Assembly: GCA_016792765.1 (NCBI GenBank)
Contig: JAEULD010000151.1
Span: 1-35,057, forward strand
DNA from: Candidatus Odyssella sp.
GTDB lineage: Bacteria > Pseudomonadota > Alphaproteobacteria > Bin65
DNA: 35,057 nt
Reading direction: 5' to 3'
The position numbers and the translations under genes are program-made. Positions 6,175 through 23,495 of this stretch are shown one piece after another (the stretch's first letter is position 1; every line of letters starts with the position of its first letter). The notes beneath the pieces are model-generated. The model saw only the letters and a list, made by a program, of their open reading frames with translations. It was not told the DNA's origin and searched no databases.

Positions 6175-6942
6175 GTGGCGCTGCTCGAGCTTCGCAACGT
6201 CGAGGCATACTACGGCCCGATCGCGGCGCTGAAGGGCGTGACCCTCGACGTGAACGAGGGCGCGATCGTCGCGGTCCTCGGCGCGAACGGCGCGGGCAAA
6301 ACGACGCTGCTGAAGGCGATCTCCGGCGCGCTCGATCCCGAGGCCGGCACGATCCGCTTCGCCGGCGCGGAGATCCAGAAGCGCGCGGCATGGGACGTGG
6401 CCGCCGCCGGAATCGCGCACGTCCCCGAAGGCCGCGAGGTGTTCCGCCATCTCTCGGTCGCCGACAATCTCAAGATGGGCGGCTTCCTGCGCCGCGACGC
6501 CGGCGGGCTGGCCGCCGATCTCGAGCGCATTTTCGGCTACTTTCCGGCGCTGCGCGCGCGCGTCCGCGAGATGGCGGGAAATCTTTCGGGCGGCGAGCAG
6601 CAGATGGTCGCGATCGGGCGCGCGCTGATGGCCCGGCCCAGGCTCATCCTGCTCGACGAGCCCTCGCTGGGGCTCTCGCCGCTGCTCGTGCAGGAGATCT
6701 ACCGCATCATCGGCCGGGTGAAGGCCGATAGCGGAGTCGCGATGCTCCTCGTCGAGCAGAACGCCAAGATGGCGCTCGACGTCGCCGATTCCGGCTACGT
6801 GCTCGAGGGCGGCCGCATCGTTCTCGCCGGCAGCGCGGAGCGCCTGCGCAGCAACGAAGACGTCAAGGAGTTCTACCTCGGCATCCGCGACGCCGGCGTG
6901 CGCGGCGTCAGGCGCTGGAAGCGGAGGAAGCAGTGGCGTTGA
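6175..6942 (+). CDS. livF: ABC transporter ATPase, LivF
   Basis: A 255-residue ATPase starting at GTG. Walker A is GANGAGKT (36-43), the family-specific IAHVPEGREVFRHLSV follows, the canonical signature LSGGEQQ is at 137-143, and Walker B LILLDEP at 157-163. The segment EPSLGLSPLLVQEI and the LLVEQN switch are LivF hallmarks. The last 15 residues are unusually basic (RGVRRWKRRKQWR) because the gene runs 10 bases into the acyl-CoA ligase gene, whose GGAGG ribosome site lies inside the livF coding sequence. This tail is absent from the second LivF of this window. Confidence 0.95.
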   Translation: MALLELRNVEAYYGPIAALKGVTLDVNEGAIVAVLGANGAGKTTLLKAISGALDPEAGTIRFAGAEIQKRAAWDVAAAGIAHVPEGREVFRHLSVADNLKMGGFLRRDAGGLAADLERIFGYFPALRARVREMAGNLSGGEQQMVAIGRALMARPRLILLDEPSLGLSPLLVQEIYRIIGRVKADSGVAMLLVEQNAKMALDVADSGYVLEGGRIVLAGSAERLRSNEDVKEFYLGIRDAGVRGVRRWKRRKQWR

Positions 6943-11988: not shown

Positions 11989-14589
11989 TCACTCGCAGGC
12001 CGGCCAGCAGTCGCGGTAGGGCGGCAGCTCCTCGAGAAAGCTCATATTGCCCGCGGCTCGCTGGCCCAGCGCGCGCTGGCGGAGCGCGAGGCGGGCGCGC
12101 TCGGCGGCGCCGTGCTCGACCGCGCGCCGGATCGCCGCCAACAGCGCATCGGAGTCGACGCTGGCGGCCGAGCCGATGCAGGCGATGCCCAGCTCGCCGG
12201 CGAGATCCCGGATCTTCGCGCCGCGCGGAATGCACACGGGCACCGAACCCGCCAGAACCGACTGGATCGCGAAATGATAGCGCTGGCCGAGCGTCACGCT
12301 GGCGTGCCGGAGCAGCGCCACGGCCTCGTCGGGGCTGAAATACGCGTTGGGCACCACCGCGGCGGCGATGCCCAGCCGTGCCGCCATGTCCCGCGCCGCC
12401 GCGTGATCGAAGAATTCGCCGTCGCGGCATTCGTTGTCGAGGAATCCCACCTGGAGCCCTTCCAGCGCGGCGGCACGCGCGATGGCGTCCGCGATCGCGC
12501 GCTTCGCCGCGTCGCTGTCGCGCCACAGCATGTTGACGACGTTGGCGACCAGCAACGGGCGGGCGGGGTCGATGCCGAGCCTGCGCCAGGTCTCTTCGGC
12601 CCAGCGCCGGCGGTCGCGCCGCGGCGCGTAGAGCCACGCCCAGTCCGCGCCGACGCGGATCCGGGCCGGCTCGATGCCGAGGTCGAGCAGCGCCGCCCGG
12701 CAGGCCTCCGAGCGCACGGTCCACGAGCGGATCGGTCCGAACGCCGCACGGAACAGCGCGCGCCCGTCCTCGGTCTGCAGCGGCTCCACGCCCACGCCGA
12801 CGGCGTCGACCGGCAGGCGATGGCGGTGGAAGTGGTCAAGGCGCGGCGCGAGAAAGCGGAGCGGCCAGTGCACGCCTTCGGCGTCGGTCACCGGCGTGCC
12901 GCCGACCAGGAGGCCCGGCATCATGGCATCCGCGTTTTCGTTGCCGCCTTCGTCGACCGGCAGGTAGCGATGCCGCGCCGGATAGGGCTCGCGGCAGCGC
13001 GCGGATTCGGGGAACAGCGCCACATCGAGCGCGATCGCGTCCGGCAGCCGGCTCCAGAACGATTGCGCCATGAGCTCGTCGCCGATGTTGCCGGCGCCGA
13101 GCCCGAGGCCGATCTGGAAGGCGCGTACGCGGTCCGGTGCGGCAAGCCGCGCCTTGGCCTTGCCGAGCTCGCGGTCGCGCAGCGCCAAGCGCTCGCGCAA
13201 CGACGCGATCTCGGCCATGTGCTGCCCGGCGATCCGCGCGGCTTCGTCGAGCGAAGCGAGCCGCTCGTGCGCCGCCGTTTCGAACATGGCCCGCGCCGCG
13301 CTCTGCTCGCGATAGGCCAGTTCGCCCCGCAAGACCGTCTCGAGCCGCTCTTCGCGATCGCGCTGGACCGCGCGGTAGGAGCGGCTCGCATCGTCGAGCA
13401 TTTCGCGCGTGCCGGCGGGCGTCTCGTCGAGCGCCACGATGGCCGGCGCGGTTCGCTGCCCGTCCAGCGCGCTTCGGAGCGCGGCCGCAACCGCGGTCAC
13501 GGGAATGCTCTCGACGCACAGCGCGTGGCCGAGCATGCAGTCCCAGTCGCAGCCGAAGCAGGGCAGCGGATGGACGATTCCGGCCGCGCCCGGCGCCCAA
13601 GGCGCGTAGCTCGGCCAGCGGCCGCCGCCGCCGAAAATGCCCACGCCGGGAACCTCGTGCGCCTGCGCCAGGTGCATCAAGCCCGAATCGTTGCCGAGCC
13701 AGGCGCGGGATTCGGCGAGAAGGGCCGCGACCGTCGCAAGATCCGCAGGCGCGCCGGCAAAGATCGCGTTCGGCGTGCCGCCGAGCGCGGCCGCGACGCG
13801 CGCGAGCACCCCGGCTTCCTCGGCCGAGCCGATCAGCACGGCCGGCCGCCCGGCGGCGCGCAGGGCCGCCGCGAAATTCGCCTCGGGCCAGCGCTTGAGC
13901 CGGGCGGCCTCGTTGCCGCCGGGAAAGCACGCGACGAATCCGCCCGGCTCCAAGCCGGATTCGCGCAGAAACGCGCGGGCCCGTTCCCGCGGCGCGGCGG
14001 CGACGCTCCAGCGCGGAGCGGGCACGGGCTCGATCGCGAACGCGCCCAGCAGATGGCGGTACCGCTCGCGCTCCCGGAGGCGCGGCGGCACGGCGATGCG
14101 ATGGATCGGGTGCCACGCCAGGCCGAAATCGCGCAGCAGGATGCGTGCGAGCGCTTCGCGCTGCGGTTCGGTGGCCACGTGGCAGGAAACCGCCGCACGC
14201 GGCCGGCAAAGCGCGGCGACGAAAGGAGCGAACCACAGCGGACGATGGCCGGCATCGATCAGCACGTCGGCGGCCAGTCCGGCGAGCGCGGCCGCGACCG
14301 GCTTCAGCGCCGCCCCGAGCGGCTCGGACGGCTCGTGCCATCGATGCGGGTCGAAGGCCAAGCCGATCGCCCTCGCGGGCGGCGCCGGAAGCAGGTCCGC
14401 GACGGCGGCGAAGTCCGCGCGGCACACGAGCGTGGTCCGCTCGCGGTGTCCGGCTGCGGCCAAGGCGAGAAGCACCTCGCCGGTCAAGACCAGATCGCCG
14501 AGGCCGCCCATTTGCAGCAGAACGATCCGGTCGCCGGGTCCGATCCGCCCGATCGGGCCGCCGCCTTCGCCCATGGCGCCGCTGTCCAT
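11989..14589 (-). CDS. Fusion of GT9 (heptosyltransferase-like) glycosyltransferase and polysaccharide pyruvyl transferase
   Basis: An 866-residue protein with two enzyme domains. Residues about 20-375 are GT9-like: LLQMGGLGDLVLTGEVLLAL (25-43), the nucleotide-sugar region CFPGGNEAARLKRWPEANF (221-239) and LGNDSGLMHLAQA (298-310), followed by a Cys cluster CFGCDWDCMLGHALC (344-358). Residues about 390-485 are Glu/Arg/Ala-rich and probably helical or coiled coil. Residues about 490-855 match polysaccharide pyruvyl transferase (CsaB-like): GLGLGAGNIGDELM (494-507), VGADWAWLYAP (646-656) and TLGQRYHFAIQSVLAGSVPV (766-785). Such enzymes add ketal pyruvate from phosphoenolpyruvate to sugars. The protein would thus both transfer a sugar and pyruvylate a glycan. 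It starts 10 bases after the stop of the GH130-like gene. There is no membrane segment, so a cytoplasmic site is expected. Domain calls are firm; the fusion is unusual in my experience. Confidence 0.85.
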   Translation of the reverse strand: MDSGAMGEGGGPIGRIGPGDRIVLLQMGGLGDLVLTGEVLLALAAAGHRERTTLVCRADFAAVADLLPAPPARAIGLAFDPHRWHEPSEPLGAALKPVAAALAGLAADVLIDAGHRPLWFAPFVAALCRPRAAVSCHVATEPQREALARILLRDFGLAWHPIHRIAVPPRLRERERYRHLLGAFAIEPVPAPRWSVAAAPRERARAFLRESGLEPGGFVACFPGGNEAARLKRWPEANFAAALRAAGRPAVLIGSAEEAGVLARVAAALGGTPNAIFAGAPADLATVAALLAESRAWLGNDSGLMHLAQAHEVPGVGIFGGGGRWPSYAPWAPGAAGIVHPLPCFGCDWDCMLGHALCVESIPVTAVAAALRSALDGQRTAPAIVALDETPAGTREMLDDASRSYRAVQRDREERLETVLRGELAYREQSAARAMFETAAHERLASLDEAARIAGQHMAEIASLRERLALRDRELGKAKARLAAPDRVRAFQIGLGLGAGNIGDELMAQSFWSRLPDAIALDVALFPESARCREPYPARHRYLPVDEGGNENADAMMPGLLVGGTPVTDAEGVHWPLRFLAPRLDHFHRHRLPVDAVGVGVEPLQTEDGRALFRAAFGPIRSWTVRSEACRAALLDLGIEPARIRVGADWAWLYAPRRDRRRWAEETWRRLGIDPARPLLVANVVNMLWRDSDAAKRAIADAIARAAALEGLQVGFLDNECRDGEFFDHAAARDMAARLGIAAAVVPNAYFSPDEAVALLRHASVTLGQRYHFAIQSVLAGSVPVCIPRGAKIRDLAGELGIACIGSAASVDSDALLAAIRRAVEHGAAERARLALRQRALGQRAAGNMSFLEELPPYRDCWPACE

Positions 14590-14599
14590 CGCGGCGCCC

Positions 14600-15598
14600 C
14601 TAATCGACCGCCGCCAGCGGCCGCATCGCCGCTTCCACCTCGGCGGCGGAAAGACGTGCGATCGCGGCGCGCGCGTCGTTGATGCCGTAGCTGATCAGCC
14701 AAGTGCCGTCGCGGTAGGCCGCGCCGCAGGGATAGACGACGGCGCCGACATGCGGATTGAGGCGGTCGCCGAGCGTGTCGGATCCGAGCGGGTTCTCGAG
14801 CCGCAGCGGGTGCAACGGCGCGTCCGTCGGCCGGAACGGAAACGCGGCGCCGAACCGGTAGACGGCGGCCGCGTAGTCGTAGCCGAGCGGGGTGGGGTAA
14901 ACCGTGTGGCAGAACGCATAGTAACCGTCGCCGAGGCGCTGCGGCGGCGCGCCGCCTCGCAACTCGCCGTATCGCAGCGCGAAGTCCCCGAGGTCCCACG
15001 GCGCCGCATGGCGCGGGCGCAGCTCGATCTCCGCGGCCTCGCCGCACGCGACGTCGAGAATCGCCTGCTGCATCGGCGAATACAGCGCCCGGAGCGGATC
15101 GTCGCCGAAGAAGGTCCAGTTCTTCTCGATCGGCCGACGGTCGCCCGCGAGACGCAGCTCGCGCGCGGGCCCGCACGGCATCAGCGTGCCGCCGTCGAGC
15201 TCGGCGACGAACTGGACATTGGGCTGCGGATCCCAGCCGGAATTCCAATAGACGAACAGGCGCCCCGCGAGCCGGTAAAGGCGCGGATCGGCAAACCACG
15301 AAAGCACGGCGTCCGGATAGGTGCGCCCCTCGGCGAAGCGAATCGCATCGCACAGCGGCACGGCCGAGCCGGGCTCGACGCGCAACCGGCCGTCCAGGCG
15401 GCAGATCGCGATCCGCCGGAGGCCGTCGGCGCCGACCATGCGATAGGCGAACAGCCAGCCCGGCCCGTCGGCGAGAAGCGCCGGATTGAACGCGCGCAAC
15501 GGCCCGCGCCCGGCGAGATCGCGCCATGCCGCCGGCAGCAGTTCTTCGGCCGAAAAATGCACGGTTCGCGGTGCGGCTCTGGGCAAGGCTCGAGTCAC
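14600..15598 (-). CDS. GH130-like five-bladed beta-propeller protein
   Basis: A 332-residue protein with the pattern of glycoside hydrolase family 130 phosphorylases and related beta-propeller proteins. It shows FNPALLADGPGWLFAYRMVG near residue 37, ADPRLYRLAGRLFVYWN (the usual EDPR region), IEKNWTFFGDD (the usual KNW/lfp region), FCHTVYPTPLGYDY, and a final blade YPCGAAYRDGTWLISYGIND. GH130 enzymes phosphorolyse or hydrolyse mannosides. The catalytic residue cannot be assigned here without alignment, so a non-catalytic sugar-binding role is possible. The start is GTG at 15598 without a clear ribosome site and is therefore uncertain. The gene sits between two glycosyltransferase genes and probably trims or senses the glycan they make. 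Confidence 0.6.
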   Translation of the reverse strand: MTRALPRAAPRTVHFSAEELLPAAWRDLAGRGPLRAFNPALLADGPGWLFAYRMVGADGLRRIAICRLDGRLRVEPGSAVPLCDAIRFAEGRTYPDAVLSWFADPRLYRLAGRLFVYWNSGWDPQPNVQFVAELDGGTLMPCGPARELRLAGDRRPIEKNWTFFGDDPLRALYSPMQQAILDVACGEAAEIELRPRHAAPWDLGDFALRYGELRGGAPPQRLGDGYYAFCHTVYPTPLGYDYAAAVYRFGAAFPFRPTDAPLHPLRLENPLGSDTLGDRLNPHVGAVVYPCGAAYRDGTWLISYGINDARAAIARLSAAEVEAAMRPLAAVD

Positions 15599-17106: not shown

Positions 17107-19026
17107 ATGGATGCGCTCATCGACGTGTCGTTTTTCGCCGCGGGCCTTGCCTGCTTCGCGGCGATCGGCTGGCCGGTCTGCGCGGCGATTCCGGCCGAGG
17201 TGCGCGGGCGGTTCTGGGCCGCTCCCGTTCTGGGGCTGGCGCTGTTCGGCGTGGTCGCTACGCTCGCCTATCGCGGCGGCGTTCCGCTGCCCTATCTGCC
17301 GTTGGTCTGTCTGTTTTTCGCGGCGGTCGCTTGCGCGCTGCCGGGCGTCCGCCGGCGCGCCGCACCGGCGGCCGATGCGCGCGCGGCGGCGATCTCGGCC
17401 GTCGCCGTCGTCGCGGTCGGGCTGCTCGTCTTGTCGCCGAAATGGATCGGCGGGCACCAGTTCGCCGCCTTCCAGGGAAATCACTACGATCAGGCGACCT
17501 ACATCGCCAACGCTTCGGCCTTCGCCAAGCTGAGCTACGGTGAACTTGCCCGTCTCTCGCCGGCCAACGTCCTCGCGAACACCTACAATCATTTCGCCGG
17601 AGAGCAACTCGGATCCCGGCCTGCCGTCGGCTTCGTGCTCGCGGCGTTGCGCGCGCCGTTCTTCGACACGACCTTCGAAGCCGCCTATGCCTATCTCGCC
17701 CTGCTGCAGGCGCTGACGTTCTTCGCCGCCGTTTTCGTGCTGCGCGCGGTCTTCGCTGTTTCGCCGATTCCGGCGCTTCTGCTTTCGGCGGCGCTGGCGG
17801 CCGGCACCTACCTGCAACTGATTTTCGACATCAACGCCTGGAGCCAGCTGGCCGCGACGCCGCTGGTCCTGGTGCTCACGGCGCTCGTCGCGCTGGCGTT
17901 CGGCCGGACGGCGCGCGCGCCGCTGTTCTTTCCGCTGACGGCGGGCGGCGCAGGCGTGTGTTACGTCTATCCCGAGATCGGGCCCATCGCGGCGTCCGCG
18001 GTCGCGGGCGCGGCCCTGGGCTGGCTGCTGATCCGCGATCGGCGCCCGTGGATCGAGGCGATGCGGGTTCCGGCGCTTGCGGGGGCCGCCGCGCTCGTCG
18101 TCTGCGTGCCCTATTGGCGCGGAACGCTCGGATCGCTCCTGATTCAGGCGCAAGCCATCGGCAGGGGCTCGTATCCGACCGAATGGTTTTTCTACTATTA
18201 TCGCTTCCTGTTCGGGCGCAACGAACACGCCGTCGATCTCGTTCTGAATTCGGCGATCCCGGCCCAGACCGCGCTGGCCGCGGCGATGGCGCTGCCGGTC
18301 GATTTCGCGCTCGGGGCGCTGGGGCTCTATTTTCTCAGCCCCGAGCCCGGCGCGGGCCGGGCGGCGGGTCTGCTCGCCGCGTGCGCCGCCGTGATCGCGT
18401 TGATCGCGGCGTGTATCGGCGCGGGGCGGGCGCTGCGCGCCGCCAACCCGGCCGGCTTCGCCTTCGTCTGCGGCGCCGTGCTGGCGTTGGCCGTTCCGGC
18501 GTCGATGCTCGCGTCGGGGAATCTGTGGCCCGGCGGGAAGGGCGTACTGATGGCCGCGCCCTTGCTGTACTTCGCGCTGATCTCGCCGCTGCTCGTGGCG
18601 ATGCCGCGCCGGCGCCGGATTCTGCCGCTGCTGCTCGTTTGCGCCCATCTCGCCTTCGCCTTCGAGCGCCCCGTCGCGGCGGCGCGCCCGAACGGCATCC
18701 ACCGCAGCTTCCCGCCCTATCCCTCGATCATGGAAAAGGCGGCGCACGATTGGGATCTGCCTCGGCACAAGAGCCGCCTGCGCGCGTGTTCGGCCGTGGC
18801 GCTCGACATCGCCCACCCGGTGCTCGACCGCGTGGCGCAAACCTTCGTCGTCGACCTGGGGCTGCGCTGGTATTCGCGAAGGCCGCTGCGATCCTACTTC
18901 GAGCAGGGCACCGATCTCGGGCGCCAGCCGCCGATCGCGGATGCCGATTGCGTTCTGACGGACGGCGCGGCGCCGCCGGGCGAACAGCGCGCGCACCATC
19001 GCATCGGGCTGCGGCGCGGCCCCTGA
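17107..19026 (+). CDS. Polytopic membrane protein, GT-C-like
   Basis: A 639-residue protein with about 13-14 hydrophobic segments and a soluble region near residues 125-175. That region, containing GNHYDQATYIANASAFAKLSYGEL, has the Asp in a first large periplasmic loop expected of GT-C transferases, though the exact DD/DE motif is not seen. Later come YYYRFLFGRNEH and a C-terminal soluble tail of about 100 residues. GT-C enzymes move sugars from polyprenyl carriers outside the membrane. The position next to glycosyltransferase genes supports such a role, but a flippase or O-antigen-ligase-like role is not excluded. The ATG at 17107 has an AGGTGA ribosome site. Function is an inference from fold and context. 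Confidence 0.65.
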   Translation: MDALIDVSFFAAGLACFAAIGWPVCAAIPAEVRGRFWAAPVLGLALFGVVATLAYRGGVPLPYLPLVCLFFAAVACALPGVRRRAAPAADARAAAISAVAVVAVGLLVLSPKWIGGHQFAAFQGNHYDQATYIANASAFAKLSYGELARLSPANVLANTYNHFAGEQLGSRPAVGFVLAALRAPFFDTTFEAAYAYLALLQALTFFAAVFVLRAVFAVSPIPALLLSAALAAGTYLQLIFDINAWSQLAATPLVLVLTALVALAFGRTARAPLFFPLTAGGAGVCYVYPEIGPIAASAVAGAALGWLLIRDRRPWIEAMRVPALAGAAALVVCVPYWRGTLGSLLIQAQAIGRGSYPTEWFFYYYRFLFGRNEHAVDLVLNSAIPAQTALAAAMALPVDFALGALGLYFLSPEPGAGRAAGLLAACAAVIALIAACIGAGRALRAANPAGFAFVCGAVLALAVPASMLASGNLWPGGKGVLMAAPLLYFALISPLLVAMPRRRRILPLLLVCAHLAFAFERPVAAARPNGIHRSFPPYPSIMEKAAHDWDLPRHKSRLRACSAVALDIAHPVLDRVAQTFVVDLGLRWYSRRPLRSYFEQGTDLGRQPPIADADCVLTDGAAPPGEQRAHHRIGLRRGP

Positions 19027-19113: not shown

Positions 19114-21468
19114 ATGCCGCGTGCCGGGATGCGTGTCGGAATAGAGGCCAGGTTCATCGAGTTCGGGCCGTCGGGCGGAATCGCGCCGCTTCTGCACCAG
19201 ACCCTGTCGACGCTGGCGCGGCGCCATCCCGAGCACCATTTCTTCGTCTATGGAACGATCTTCAATCGCAGCCTCGTCGATCCGGAGGCGGCCAACGTCA
19301 CCGTCGCAGCGCTTCCGCTCGACCTCGCGAGCACATGGCCGTCGCTCGATTCGCGCCTGGCGCGCGACGACGTCGACGTGCTCTTTCGATCCTATCCGGT
19401 TCTCGATTCCCTGCGGTTTCCGCCCGGCCGCCAGGTCGTCCTCATCCCCGACCTGCAGCACGATCGCTTTCCCGAGTTCTTCGCCGCGGAGACCTTGAAG
19501 CAGCGGCGGGCGGCCTTCGCGCGCGTGCTCGGATCGGCAGGCGCGATCGGCACGATTTCGGAGTATGCGCGCAAGACCATCGTCGATTCGCCGCAGAACC
19601 GGTGCCGCGACGTATTCCTGATGCAGCCGGCGCTGAAACCGCACGACGCGGCCGGCGCCGCCAGCCCGGCGCTCGCCAAACGGCTGGCGGCGATCGGCTC
19701 GTATTTCCTGTTCCCGGCCAATCTCTGGCCGCACAAGAACCACGAAAGGCTGTTGCGCGCGTTCGAGACCTACCGCCGCGCCACCGGCCGCAACGATGCG
19801 ATGGTGTTCACCGGGCATCCGGAAGGCTGGGAGCGGCTTGCGCCGAAATTCGGCCACCTGCCGGTCCATCACCTGGGCTTCGTCGGCGACAACAACCTGC
19901 GGTTGCTTTACCGGAAAGCGCTGGCGCTGACGTTCTTCTCGCTCTACGAAGGCTTCGGCATGCCGCTGCTCGAGGCGTTCGACGCCGATTGCCCGGTGAT
20001 CTGCAGCGATACGACGAGCCTGCCGGAAGTGGGCGGCGATGCGGTCCTGTCGTGCGACCCGTGCGACATCGGCGCGATGGCGCGGCTGATGGAGCGCGTG
20101 GCCACGGACGAGACGCTGCGCGCCTCGCTCGCGGCGCGCGGGCGGGGGCGGCTGGGGCGATACCGCTGGGAGCGTTCGGCCGACGAGCTCATGGCCGCCT
20201 TGGAGCGCGTCGGCGGAGGCTCGGCGCAAGGCCGGATATCCGGTCACCCGCTCGTCTCGATCGTGACCCCCTCGTTCAACCAGGGCCGATTCCTGCGGCG
20301 CACGATCGACAGCGTGCTGAACCAGACCTATGGCAACATCGAGTATCTGGTCGTCGACGGCGGGTCGACCGACGATTCCAAGGCGATCCTCGCAAGCTAC
20401 GGCGACCGCCTGCGCTGGATTTCCGAGCCGGACGGCGGGCAGACGAACGCCATCAACAAGGGTTTCGCGCAGGCGCGCGGGGAGATCCGGGCCTATCTCA
20501 ATTCCGACGATACGCTCCTGCCCGACGCGGTCGAGCAGGCCGTGGCGTTCTTCCGCCGGAATCCGGACTGCGACCTCGTCTACGGCGAGGGCATCTACAT
20601 CGACGAGCACGACCGGACCGTCGGAACCTACGACACGGCCGAGTATTCGTTCGAGCGCCTGATGTGGGATTGCTGCGTGTGCCAGCCGGCGGCGTTCTGG
20701 CGGCGCGGCGTTGCCGATCGGATAGGGCCGTTCGACGAGCGCCTGCATTATGCGATGGACTACGATTACTGGCTGCGAATCGGCCGGGCCGGCGGGCGTA
20801 TCGTGCACCTGCGCCGCCCGCTCGCGAACTCCCGCGTGCATCGGGACACGAAAACGCAATCGCGCCGGGCCGAGATCTTCGCCGAGATCTTCGACGTATG
20901 CTTCCGGCACGGCGGCTATGTCAGCTACAACTATTTCCTCGGCCTCTGGCACGAACGGCTTGCGCGCGTTCGCCGCCGCGCGCCGCTTGCCATCGAGAGG
21001 GGCGATCCCGGCCGCGCGGTGAAGCTGCTCGCGCGCGCCCATTCCCGATGGTTTCACTTCTATCGCCGATTCAAGGCCTCGCTCGCCCGCATCGCGGGGG
21101 CCGCCGGCCGTTCGTCCGGCAGCGGGCGGGCGCGCATAGCGCCGCCCAACGGCAAGCGGGTCGCCGGCTTCTGGCCGGATGCGTGGTTGGCCCCCGAGGC
21201 TCGCATCAGCAAGCCGGATTTCGGGCAGGCGGCCCTGCTGCATCTCTCGGGCCGGGCGGCGCGCGATTGCGAGCTCGTGATTTCGGCGAACGGGTCGGTG
21301 CTGACGACGGCGACGCTCGGCGGAAACCGGGAGGTGAGGATCGAGTTTCCGCCGCCGCGCGAGGCGCCCATCGACATCCGGTTCACGTCGTCGATGATCG
21401 ATCCGGCGGGGCGCGAACTGGCGTTTCGGGTCTCGAGCACGAACATGTTCGCGGAGCGCGACCTCTAG
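19114..21468 (+). CDS. Bifunctional glycosyltransferase: GT4 domain, GT2 domain, C-terminal beta-rich domain
   Basis: A 784-residue protein. Residues 1-370 are a GT-B fold family 4 transferase: FPANLWPHKNHERLLRAFE (200-218) and the E-x7-E motif EGFGMPLLEAF (279-289), followed by DTTSLPEVGGDA. Residues about 378-620 are a GT2 domain: VSIVTPSFNQGRF (381-393), VVDGGSTDDS (413-422), the metal site NSDD (463-466) and MDYDYWLRIGRAG (548-560). After a basic linker, residues about 685-784 form a beta-rich domain (ARISKPDFGQ, then ELVISANGSVL) that may bind carbohydrate. Two sequential sugar additions by one polypeptide are likely. Start choice: ATG at 19114 or at 19129 (MRVGIEARF); neither has a ribosome site. 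It follows the membrane protein by 87 bases. Confidence 0.88.
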   Translation: MPRAGMRVGIEARFIEFGPSGGIAPLLHQTLSTLARRHPEHHFFVYGTIFNRSLVDPEAANVTVAALPLDLASTWPSLDSRLARDDVDVLFRSYPVLDSLRFPPGRQVVLIPDLQHDRFPEFFAAETLKQRRAAFARVLGSAGAIGTISEYARKTIVDSPQNRCRDVFLMQPALKPHDAAGAASPALAKRLAAIGSYFLFPANLWPHKNHERLLRAFETYRRATGRNDAMVFTGHPEGWERLAPKFGHLPVHHLGFVGDNNLRLLYRKALALTFFSLYEGFGMPLLEAFDADCPVICSDTTSLPEVGGDAVLSCDPCDIGAMARLMERVATDETLRASLAARGRGRLGRYRWERSADELMAALERVGGGSAQGRISGHPLVSIVTPSFNQGRFLRRTIDSVLNQTYGNIEYLVVDGGSTDDSKAILASYGDRLRWISEPDGGQTNAINKGFAQARGEIRAYLNSDDTLLPDAVEQAVAFFRRNPDCDLVYGEGIYIDEHDRTVGTYDTAEYSFERLMWDCCVCQPAAFWRRGVADRIGPFDERLHYAMDYDYWLRIGRAGGRIVHLRRPLANSRVHRDTKTQSRRAEIFAEIFDVCFRHGGYVSYNYFLGLWHERLARVRRRAPLAIERGDPGRAVKLLARAHSRWFHFYRRFKASLARIAGAAGRSSGSGRARIAPPNGKRVAGFWPDAWLAPEARISKPDFGQAALLHLSGRAARDCELVISANGSVLTTATLGGNREVRIEFPPPREAPIDIRFTSSMIDPAGRELAFRVSSTNMFAERDL

Positions 21469-21563: not shown

Positions 21564-23495
21564 ATGATTTCGGTTGTTCTCTACGGGAGAAACGACGATC
21601 ACGGCTACAACCTGCACAAGCGGGTGGCCATCAGCCTGAATTGCATCGCGGAGCTGCTGGCGGACGAGGCCGACGAGATCGTTTTCGTCGATTACAACAC
21701 GCCCGACGATCTGCCGACCTTGCCGGAGGCGATCGGCGATACGCTTGCCGCGAAAACGCGGCGCCGGCTGCGGATCCTCCGCGTGCGGCCCGATATCCAC
21801 GCCCGCTACGCGCAGCGCACGCCTCTGCCGGTCCTCGAGGCCATCGCCCGCAACGTCGCGGTGCGGCGCTCGAACCCCGGCAATCGCTGGATCCTCTCGA
21901 CGAACGGCGACATGGTGTTCGCGCCGCGGGCCGAAGCGTCGCTCTCCGCCATCGCGCGCGAATTGCCGGCCGGGCTGTATCACATCCCGCGTTTCGACCT
22001 GCCCGAGGCGCTCTGGGAATCGTTCGACCGGATGGACGGTCCCGGCACGATCGAGGCGGTCCGCCATTGGGGCGCCGCCGCGCATCTCGACGAAGTCGTT
22101 CGCCGCGACTTCGTGCGATACGATTGTCCGGGCGACTTCCAGCTCATGCCGCGCGGCGATCTCTGCCGGATCGGCGGGTTCGACGAGCGGCTGATCCACG
22201 GCTGGCATCTCGACTACAACGTCGCCAAGCGGATGAGTTTCCTCTATGGCGGCGTCGGCGATCTCGCCGGCGAACTGGCGGGATACCATTGCGATCACAC
22301 GCGCCGGTCCACGCCGACTCACGAGCCGGACCACCGGGCCAACAGCTGGTACCTGGCCTACGACTCGGTCGCCCGCGCGGAGCTGCCGGAGCAGGCGGAA
22401 AGTTGGGGATGCCCCGGCGACGCCATCGAGGAAATCAGGCTCGCGGAACCCGCCGGCAGCCGATACCTCGCGGCTCTGCGCGCCTCGCTCGTCGCGCCCT
22501 CGCGCGATGCCGGCCGCGCGGGCCCCGGCGCCGCAGGCGGCGAGAAAACCGCCCGGCCGCACCACGTCGTGCCGTTTCTGGCCAGCCTCGTGGCGCCGGC
22601 GCCCCGCGGCTGGGCCGCCGCATGGTTCGGGGAAGACCCCGAGCTGCTCGGGCTGTTTCGCGCGGCCTGGACGGCGCTCGGCTTCGAACGGCCGGTCGCA
22701 GTTCCGCGCGAGCTCGAAGACCTGTCGCGCGCCGGCTCGGGCGGCCTGGCCATCGGCGGGGCCGCGGAGATCCTCGAAACCGCGAACGTGCTGCTGTTCG
22801 ATTTCGCCGTTCCCGGAACGGACGAGGCCCGGGGCCCGAACTCCGCGAGCGCCGTCGAAGGCATGTTCCTGCGAGCCATCGACGGCGAGCGCAGCCGGAT
22901 CGCCGGCGGGCGGCCGGCCCGGCTCTTCGTCTGCGTCGACGCCGTCGACAACCGGTACGAGCAGATGGTTCTGGCGCAGCTGGCGGCGGTTCACACCCCG
23001 GCCGGCACGCGGCTGCGCTACGGTTACGTGCGGCCCGCCGGCGGCCACGCCGGAGACTGGCTCGCGCGCATGGATGTGGGCCCCGCCGGCTACCGCGACC
23101 GGACGGCCATCCGCGCGCGCGCGCACGTGCCCGGCGCCGCCGCCTACGGCCCGCGCGTCTGGCTTCCGCCCGGTTCCTATTGCGCGCGGGTGGAGTTCAC
23201 GCTCGCCGGCTTCGGCGGCGTCAGGTCGCTGTTCCGGCTGCTGTGGCGGCTCGGGCGCGTGGCCCAGTTCTGCATCGCCGCCGGGGGGCGGGTGCTCGCC
23301 AAGCGCTCGGCTTTCCTCATCGGTCCGCGGCGGCGCTCCATCCGGTTCGAGTTCTCGGTGGCGCCGACCGCCGGCGGCGCGGCGGGCGCGGCAGACCTCG
23401 AGGCCTGGATCCTCACCAGCGGCATCTGCGATCTCGCGGTTTCGCGGCTGGACGTCAGCCCATCCGGCGACGGAGCCGGCCAGGGCCGCGCATAG
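21564..23495 (+). CDS. GT-A type glycosyltransferase with a large unassigned C-terminal half
   Basis: A 643-residue protein. Residues 1 to about 245 look like a GT-A transferase: ISVVLYGRNDDHGYNLHKR at the N-terminus, DEIVFVDYNTPDDLPTL (37-53), WILSTNGDMVFAPR (109-122) in the place of the metal-binding DxD, and CPGDFQLMPRGDLCRIGGFDER (188-209), the usual acceptor-side region, with a His-rich segment following. Residues about 245-480 resemble nothing I know and include an Ala/Gly-rich linker near 315-325. The last 150 residues contain alternating hydrophobic strands (SYCARVEFTLAGF, SIRFEFSVAP, LEAWILTSGICDLAVSRLDV) that suggest a beta-sandwich, similar in style to the end of the preceding protein. 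No membrane helix is evident. It probably acts in the same glycan pathway. Confidence 0.7.
   Translation: MISVVLYGRNDDHGYNLHKRVAISLNCIAELLADEADEIVFVDYNTPDDLPTLPEAIGDTLAAKTRRRLRILRVRPDIHARYAQRTPLPVLEAIARNVAVRRSNPGNRWILSTNGDMVFAPRAEASLSAIARELPAGLYHIPRFDLPEALWESFDRMDGPGTIEAVRHWGAAAHLDEVVRRDFVRYDCPGDFQLMPRGDLCRIGGFDERLIHGWHLDYNVAKRMSFLYGGVGDLAGELAGYHCDHTRRSTPTHEPDHRANSWYLAYDSVARAELPEQAESWGCPGDAIEEIRLAEPAGSRYLAALRASLVAPSRDAGRAGPGAAGGEKTARPHHVVPFLASLVAPAPRGWAAAWFGEDPELLGLFRAAWTALGFERPVAVPRELEDLSRAGSGGLAIGGAAEILETANVLLFDFAVPGTDEARGPNSASAVEGMFLRAIDGERSRIAGGRPARLFVCVDAVDNRYEQMVLAQLAAVHTPAGTRLRYGYVRPAGGHAGDWLARMDVGPAGYRDRTAIRARAHVPGAAAYGPRVWLPPGSYCARVEFTLAGFGGVRSLFRLLWRLGRVAQFCIAAGGRVLAKRSAFLIGPRRRSIRFEFSVAPTAGGAAGAADLEAWILTSGICDLAVSRLDVSPSGDGAGQGRA

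What the first reader, a model, noticed from the sequence alone, without database searches (positions are those of the whole stretch)
11989..14589. GT9 glycosyltransferase fused to a polysaccharide pyruvyl transferase
One 866-residue protein holds a heptosyltransferase-like domain, a helical linker and a CsaB-like pyruvyl transferase. Fusing sugar addition to pyruvate capping would couple chain growth to a terminal or side-chain pyruvate ketal. I do not know a characterised protein with this order of domains.
Basis: partly seen in the sequence, partly recalled or inferred. Interest (0 to 1): 0.66.

Follow-up and report, generated by a model that had tools for sequence, protein, structure and literature searches.

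The report
Sugar-adding and pyruvate-capping enzymes fused
A bacterial protein joins an enzyme that probably adds a sugar to a surface glycan with one that probably caps it with pyruvate; relatives in other phyla fuse the same two enzymes in the reverse order and attach them to a coiled coil built of repeats, which suggests a chain-capping machine whose length could vary.

Summary
One clean 866-residue ORF (11989-14589, minus) carries a GT9 domain (about residues 20-380), a helical segment (394-482) and a PF04230 pyruvyltransferase (PPT) domain (488-866). Neither active site looks degenerate. The exact order GT9-helix-PPT was seen in this genome alone. Both halves are, however, part of a recurring gene set. 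In an Acidobacteriaceae MAG the two are separate neighbouring genes. In two further genomes, drawn from that MAG's class, they are fused in the opposite order (PPT-GT9-coil, 1220 and 1360 aa). In all three, GT4-GT2 genes like the window's follow. Other loci fuse the PPT to a methyltransferase or place it beside a Wzm/Wzt exporter with a Wzt_C domain. The long coils of the relatives contain in-frame repeats of 28 or 49 residues (4 or 7 heptads), and the two reverse fusions differ in length by exactly 140 = 5 x 28 residues. I read the protein as a bifunctional chain-end module: GT9 adds a sugar and PPT ketal-pyruvylates it. In relatives the module sits on a coil that may be a ruler like that of WbdD. 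Both catalytic activities, the 'terminal' position and the ruler are inferred. New variant of a known kind.

The parts
11989..14589 (-). GT9-helix-PPT fusion gene, 866 aa
13450..14532 (-). GT9 domain (about residues 20-380): GLGD (D32), KRWP (K232), NDSGxxH (D301, H306), Cys cluster C344/C347/C351/C358
   Evidence: Pfam; model matches 3tov Z 27.1, 1psw Z 24.9, WaaC 2h1h Z 24.0; motifs
13144..13410 (-). helical linker (residues 394-482); its first part is homologous to the start of the coil in L036
11989..13128 (-). PS_pyruv_trans domain (residues 488-866): N501xG503D504, R626, R770xH772, K792
   Evidence: Pfam; motifs
14600..15598 (-). GH130-like protein, 332 aa, 10 bp upstream of the fusion; a 45% relative lies near the PPT gene in L104
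15889..17037 (-). GT2 glycosyltransferase, relatives beside the PPT in L064, L102, L103
17107..19026 (+). 639-aa protein with about 13 hydrophobic segments, no Pfam match; 71-residue relative in the L079 cluster
19114..21468 (+). GT4-GT2 fusion, 784 aa; homologous fusions follow the PPT/GT9 genes in L036, L102, L103
21564..23495 (+). 643-aa protein without a Pfam match, last gene of the divergent cluster

Best explanation
The protein is a bifunctional chain-end enzyme of a surface-glycan pathway. Its N-terminal GT9 domain transfers a sugar from a nucleotide sugar to the growing, lipid-linked glycan. Its C-terminal PF04230 domain then transfers pyruvate from phosphoenolpyruvate onto that (or the neighbouring) sugar as a ketal, which ends or decorates the chain. 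The helical linker holds the two sites together. In relatives the same pair sits at one end of a long coiled coil built of heptad-keeping repeats, the place that terminators hold on the WbdD-type ruler, so the ancestral role was probably termination at a set distance from the polymerase; the window protein keeps only a short stretch of that coil. Shown: the ORF, the two domains, intact motifs, co-inheritance of both halves, fusion in two opposite orders, the shared GT4/GT2 neighbours, and the coil repeats of the relatives. Inferred: both catalytic activities, the order of the reactions, the terminal position, and the ruler.
For: Domains and motifs; GT9 fold Z 24-27. PPT residues that align with mutagenised CsaB R148, H308 and K328 are all kept (R626, H772, K792; against passages of PMC10435577; the correspondence is by motif, CsaB itself was not in my alignment), as is NxGD of WbbZ. 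Relatives: L036 has PPT then GT9-coil then GT4-GT2; L102 and L103 are PPT-GT9-coil fusions followed by GT4-GT2 and GT2. Both halves group with the same genomes: PPT 96/94 with L036, L102, L103, L104; GT9 94/95 with L036, L102, L103. In 10 loci examined, a GT9 relative is in the locus in 6 (fused in 3) and a GT4-GT2 relative in 8, the window included. Chain-end logic: the PPT of three other loci lies with Wzt-type ATPases, of which L037 passes the Wzt_C cut-off and L063 matches below it. Coil repeats: 84 bp x 5.8 and x 10.7, 147 bp x 2.5; 1220 against 1360 aa, both colinear to the GT9 Cys motif.
Against: I tested no biochemistry and know of none for any member. The window's own helix is short (about 89 residues) and shows no long repeat. 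Its genome has no Wzt_C match; the Wzm/Wzt pair on contig C9 has a short Wzt of 256 aa, so cap-gated export is not supported here. No exporter genes were found in the L102, L103 or L104 stretches either. The S/T of the Rxxx(S/T) motif is Cys here. The PPT model is of low confidence (pLDDT 67) and matched generic GT-B proteins; the solved pyruvyltransferases were not among the 50 rows shown. L063, L064 and L104 have the PPT without a GT9 in the stretch held.
Confidence: 0.5

Rival explanations
1. The enzyme decorates every repeat unit (side-chain or in-chain pyruvate) before polymerisation: GT9 adds one sugar of the repeat unit and PPT pyruvylates it, as CsaB does on each repeat of the P. alvei wall polymer.
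For: CsaB pyruvylates ManNAc in every repeat of the P. alvei polymer (passages of PMC6801904). The window cluster has a 639-aa multi-spanning protein that could be a Wzy-type polymerase and no polysaccharide exporter was recognised in the window.
Against: In L037, L063 and L079 the PPT lies with ABC-exporter ATPases and a methyltransferase, the company of chain-end modifiers; long repeat-built coils in relatives fit a terminator better.
Confidence: 0.27
2. The fusion is functionally neutral: two enzymes of one pathway became joined through gene rearrangement, and act independently on different residues of the same glycan.
For: Modules of this gene set are fused in many permutations: MT-PPT (L064), PPT-MT (L079), GT9-coil-GT2 (L037), GT9-GT2-coil (L079), GT4-GT2 (window, L036).
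Against: The GT9/PPT pair in particular is fused in two opposite orders and is adjacent in a third arrangement, with both halves from the same lineage.
Confidence: 0.15
3. The C-terminal domain is not a ketal-pyruvyltransferase but a divergent GT-B transferase with another donor.
For: Pfam score only just above the cut-off (28.3 against 25.3 bits); L104's relative scores below it; the PPT-only model matched generic GT-B and 2-epimerase folds.
Against: The PEP-site motif residues of CsaB/Pvg1p/WbbZ are kept in the window; several relatives score well above the Pfam cut-off.
Confidence: 0.07
4. Assembly artefact: two genes joined by misassembly of a draft genome.
For: The genome is in 376 contigs, and the exact order GT9-PPT was seen only once.
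Against: One open frame with even codon-position GC across the junction; the junction falls between the coil homologous to L036 and the natural N-terminus of the PPT of L102; fusions of the same pair exist elsewhere.
Confidence: 0.02

Closest known systems
WbbZ, terminal pyruvyltransferase of Klebsiella pneumoniae O1 antigen (PMC10629545, sections 9 and 10 and passages read)
   Same: pyruvyltransferase with NxGD, R and H motifs acting in a glycan locus; it caps the non-reducing end and stops the polymerase in vitro
   Different: not described as fused to a GT9; no coil mentioned; diverged in sequence
CsaB of Paenibacillus alvei (PMC10435577 passages read)
   Same: PEP-site residues R148, H308, K328 correspond by motif to R626, H772, K792
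   Different: 396-aa enzyme without a GT9; the window protein is far below the TIGR03609 cut-off (49.3 against 213.1 bits)
WbdD and other coiled-coil chain terminators, K. pneumoniae O7 ORF6 and O12 WbbB (PMC11231755 passages read)
   Same: terminating enzyme at one end of a coiled coil, modules fused in varied orders with GT domains
   Different: their caps are methyl, methylphosphate or Kdo, not pyruvate; other catalytic domains; the window's helix is short
GT9 heptosyltransferases WaaC/WaaF and 3tov
   Same: fold (Z 24-27) and sequence similarity to 1psw over the KRWP and NDSG stretches
   Different: below all heptosyltransferase equivalog cut-offs; fused to PPT; donor unknown
CsaB-type PPT-GT4 fusions of the L036 phylum (L066, L068, L069, L070)
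   Same: a PF04230 domain fused to a glycosyltransferase
   Different: PPT first, GT4 not GT9; those placed in the tree (L066, L068, L070) lie in a different PPT clade

Membership tests
PF04230 polysaccharide pyruvyltransferases | Pfam score over the gathering cut-off | tested here: met
   28.3 against 25.3 bits
PF04230 polysaccharide pyruvyltransferases | NxGD motif and PEP-site R, RxH and K residues | tested here: met
   N501xG503D504, R626, R770xH772, K792; residue roles from PMC10435577 and PMC10629545 passages
PF04230 polysaccharide pyruvyltransferases | S/T four residues after the conserved Arg (WbbZ set) | tested here: not met
   Cys630 here, Cys also in L036, L037, L063, L064, L079, L102, L103, L104
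PF04230 polysaccharide pyruvyltransferases | fold nearest to Pvg1p/WbbZ | tested here: inconclusive
   GT-B fold; these entries not among the 50 rows shown for a model of pLDDT 67
PF04230 polysaccharide pyruvyltransferases | PEP-dependent ketal formation | not testable with these tools
   needs an assay
CsaB equivalog TIGR03609 | score over the equivalog cut-off | tested here: not met
   49.3 against 213.1 bits
Glycosyltransferase family 9 | Pfam score and GT9 fold | tested here: met
   56.9 against 22 bits; 3tov Z 27.1, rmsd 3.6, 325 aligned; 1psw Z 24.9, rmsd 4.0, 305 aligned
LPS heptosyltransferase I/II | score over an equivalog cut-off | tested here: not met
   TIGR02195 54.5 against 134.6, TIGR02193 34.9 against 185.3 bits
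Coiled-coil chain terminators (WbdD type) | terminating enzyme at the end of an extended coiled coil | tested here: inconclusive
   long coils by sequence in L036, L102, L103 but a helix of about 89 residues in the window
Coiled-coil chain terminators (WbdD type) | ABC exporter with a cap-reading Wzt C-terminal domain | tested here: not met
   no PF14524 match in the window's genome; among the relatives L037 passes the cut-off and L063 is below it

The most novel reading that the evidence does not exclude
GT9 plus pyruvyltransferase is a pyruvate-forming chain-terminator module, and in the relatives the number of 28- or 49-residue repeats in the attached coiled coil sets glycan length, so that chain length evolves by gain and loss of repeats in register; the window shows the module fused in the reverse order with the ruler nearly lost.
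Probability: 0.3. Interest if true: 0.75.

Novelty: new variant of a known kind. Interest (0 to 1): 0.56.

Why it matters
[quoted passage not shown] A set of proteins in which the pyruvyltransferase is covalently tied to a glycosyltransferase, in both orders, and to coils whose length differs by whole heptad repeats, would make that idea directly testable and gives natural length variants for the test.

Tried and rejected
Misassembly was considered and rejected on frame, composition and independent fusions. Heptosyltransferase and CsaB as names were rejected on the equivalog cut-offs. Cap-gated export in the window's own genome is not supported. The viral collection gave no relative, nor did the plasmid collection. 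A profile of the PPT found no solved structure by sequence. Fold search of the full model and of the PPT half gave generic GT-B matches for the PPT part; Pvg1p and WbbZ were absent from the 50 rows shown, which excludes nothing. A literature search for WaaC Asp13 found nothing and another gave one paper on O-fucosylation, seen only as a listing, so the catalytic roles of D32, K232, D301 and H306 in GT9 are recalled. A weak 95-residue hit of the L079 GT9-GT2-coil protein in L104 was not counted as a GT9; a 71-residue match of the 639-aa protein in L079 was counted as a relative of that protein. In one search the Wzt query also hit the window at 6208-6852, inside an ABC ATPase that I read as amino-acid-transporter type (the ATPase is; the type is my inference from its neighbours), so I did not count it. 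L033/L035/L095 were treated as outgroup; L095 is one of the 10 loci.

Sampling limits: the genome searches scored only the best few candidates of each genome (last column) and drew a few hundred genomes from larger groups, so absence elsewhere is not shown. each examined a 385-genome sample of the same class, with listed handles in common.

Full report
What is there. The minus-strand ORF 11989-14589 encodes 866 residues. Pfam finds Glyco_transf_9 (2.5e-15) and PS_pyruv_trans (2.1e-6), both over their cut-offs. The frame is clean across the junction, with even codon-position GC and no candidate start codon in residues 471-505. It is the only match to both halves in its genome; two other places match the GT9 part only. 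It lies 10 bp downstream of a GH130-like gene, in a divergent cluster: GT2, GH130-like and the fusion on the minus strand; a 639-aa multi-spanning protein, a GT4-GT2 fusion and a 643-aa unassigned protein on the plus strand. Around it are ordinary metabolic genes, among them two sets of transporter genes of branched-chain amino-acid type.

The two active sites. The GT9 half keeps GLGD, KRWP, NDSGxxH and a Cys cluster, and the model of residues 12-380 matches 3tov (Z 27.1), 1psw (24.9) and WaaC 2h1h (24.0). The roles of its catalytic residues are recalled. The PPT half keeps NxGD, R626, R770xH772 and K792. In CsaB, both R148 variants and two of four H308 variants lost activity, and K328 was linked to PEP binding (passages of PMC10435577); NxGD, Rxxx(S/T) and H are named for WbbZ and its orthologues (PMC10629545 section 9). 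I place the residues by motif; CsaB and WbbZ themselves were not in my alignments. One departure: the S/T is Cys630, as it is in 8 of the other 9 rows. The PPT model is of low confidence and its fold matches are generic.

How common. Among 385 genomes of the window's class the only full-length match of the fusion at E <= 1e-20 was the genome itself, with the PPT half alone in one other, G192. A PPT profile at E <= 1e-15 found own, G192 and a weak G355 (3 of 385). The PPT half at E <= 1e-6 was in 3 of 398 genomes of the phylum sample (own, G192, G585). In 61 relatives (own included) all matches listed outside the fusion itself covered the GT9 part only. The scan of genome contigs returned 7 loci, of which one (L036) matched both halves and one (L037) the PPT only. 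The PPT profile matched 12 of 297 genomes in a phylum sample around L036's genome at E <= 1e-12, 3 of 297 around L037's genome at E <= 1e-20, and 4 of 171 in the class of L036's genome at E <= 1e-40.

The relatives change the picture. In L036 the PPT (444 aa) is followed by a GT9 with a long coil (867 aa) and a GT4-GT2 fusion. In L102 and L103 one gene encodes PPT-GT9-coil, 1220 and 1360 aa, with both Pfam domains over cut-off, followed by a GT4-GT2 protein and a GT2. That is the opposite order to the window. L064 has an MT-PPT fusion with GT4 and GT2 genes. L079 has Wzm, Wzt, PPT-MT, GT9-GT2-coil, GT4 and a relative of the window's membrane protein. L037 has Wzm, Wzt with Wzt_C, PPT, MT and GT9-coil-GT2. 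L063 has MT, PPT and a Wzt-type ATPase. L104 has a PPT with a GH130-like gene that is 45% identical to the window's over 315 residues. Of 10 loci examined together, window included: GT9 relatives in 6 (3 fused, L036 adjacent, L037 and L079 in the cluster), GT4-GT2 relatives in 8, MT in 4, Wzt-type in 3 (leaving out the window's own hit to the ATPase at 6208-6852), GH130-like in 2. L063 and L064 are short contigs, so their absences mean little.

Co-inheritance. The PPT of the window groups with L036, L104, L102 and L103 (96/94), and its GT9 with L036, L102 and L103 (94/95). In one search, with fewer rows, L036 was its sister (98/97); L102/L103 were, at 81/85, so the exact sister is unsettled. 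Since the orders GT9-PPT and PPT-GT9 both exist, the simplest account is that the pair was joined more than once. Domain swapping after one fusion is not excluded.

The coil. L036's coil contains a 147-bp unit (49 residues, 7 heptads) in 2.5 copies. L102 and L103 contain an 84-bp unit (28 residues, 4 heptads) in 5.8 and 10.7 copies. These two proteins are colinear up to the GT9 Cys motif (position 700 in both), and their coils, from 60 residues after that motif to the end, are 460 and 600 residues long, a difference of exactly five units. Coil is read from sequence; no coiled-coil predictor was run on the relatives. Published terminators of the WbdD type hold their catalytic site at the distal end of a coil whose length sets glycan length (passages of PMC11231755; PMC10629545 section 10). 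The repeat variation is what a length-tuning ruler would show, but it may also be neutral coil drift, and copy numbers from draft assemblies are uncertain. The window has only about 89 helical residues, of which the first part is homologous to L036's coil start, and no long repeat.

Mechanism. Most likely a bifunctional enzyme at the glycan end: GT9 adds a sugar and PPT ketal-pyruvylates it. Which sugar is unknown. Genes resembling those for GDP-fucose synthesis, by my reading of the sequences, lie in L037 and L102, and a GDP-mannose dehydratase-like gene in L063. Export in the window's organism may use the Wzm/Wzt pair on contig C9, whose Wzt is short, 256 aa (named by my reading; ABC2_membrane match; no PF14524 in the genome).

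Novelty. My searches of the paper library found no described GT9-PPT fusion (the library is open-licence only), on the coiled-coil ruler with 'pyruvyl', listed 11 papers; two of these were read in part (PMC10629545, PMC11231755), the rest seen as listings. PF04230 fused to a GT4 occurs in the phylum of L036, so fusion of a pyruvyltransferase to a glycosyltransferase as such is not unique to this window.

Noticed in passing
L103:6907-7805, L102:12536-13021, L036:10258-10623: Coiled-coil segments of GT9-bearing proteins are built of tandem repeats of 28 or 49 residues; L102 and L103 differ by exactly 140 residues.
   Followed up: partly
L064:90-1994 and L079:7589-9946: The same PPT subfamily is fused to a methyltransferase in both orders (MT-PPT and PPT-MT).
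   Followed up: partly
L066:6198-8843, L067:8779-12642, L068:7239-9932, L069:7481-12727, L070:2014-4806: CsaB-type PPT domains fused to C-terminal GT4 and, in L067 and L069, GT2 domains in the phylum of L036.
   Followed up: no
window 14600-15598 and L104:7382-8419: A GH130-like protein (sub-threshold in the window) accompanies this PPT subfamily in two genomes; role unknown.
   Followed up: partly
L092:3268-4900 (contig C9 of the window's genome): A Wzm/Wzt exporter pair, with a short Wzt of 256 aa, lies on another contig of the same genome, near a GT2 gene.
   Followed up: partly
window 17107-19026 and 21564-23495: Two cluster proteins of 639 and 643 aa without Pfam matches; the first has about 13 hydrophobic segments and could be a polymerase or other membrane enzyme.
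   Followed up: no
L079:6757-7578: A 273-aa helical protein with a possible nuclease-like C-terminal part (by eye only) sits between the PPT-MT and GT9-GT2 genes.
   Followed up: no
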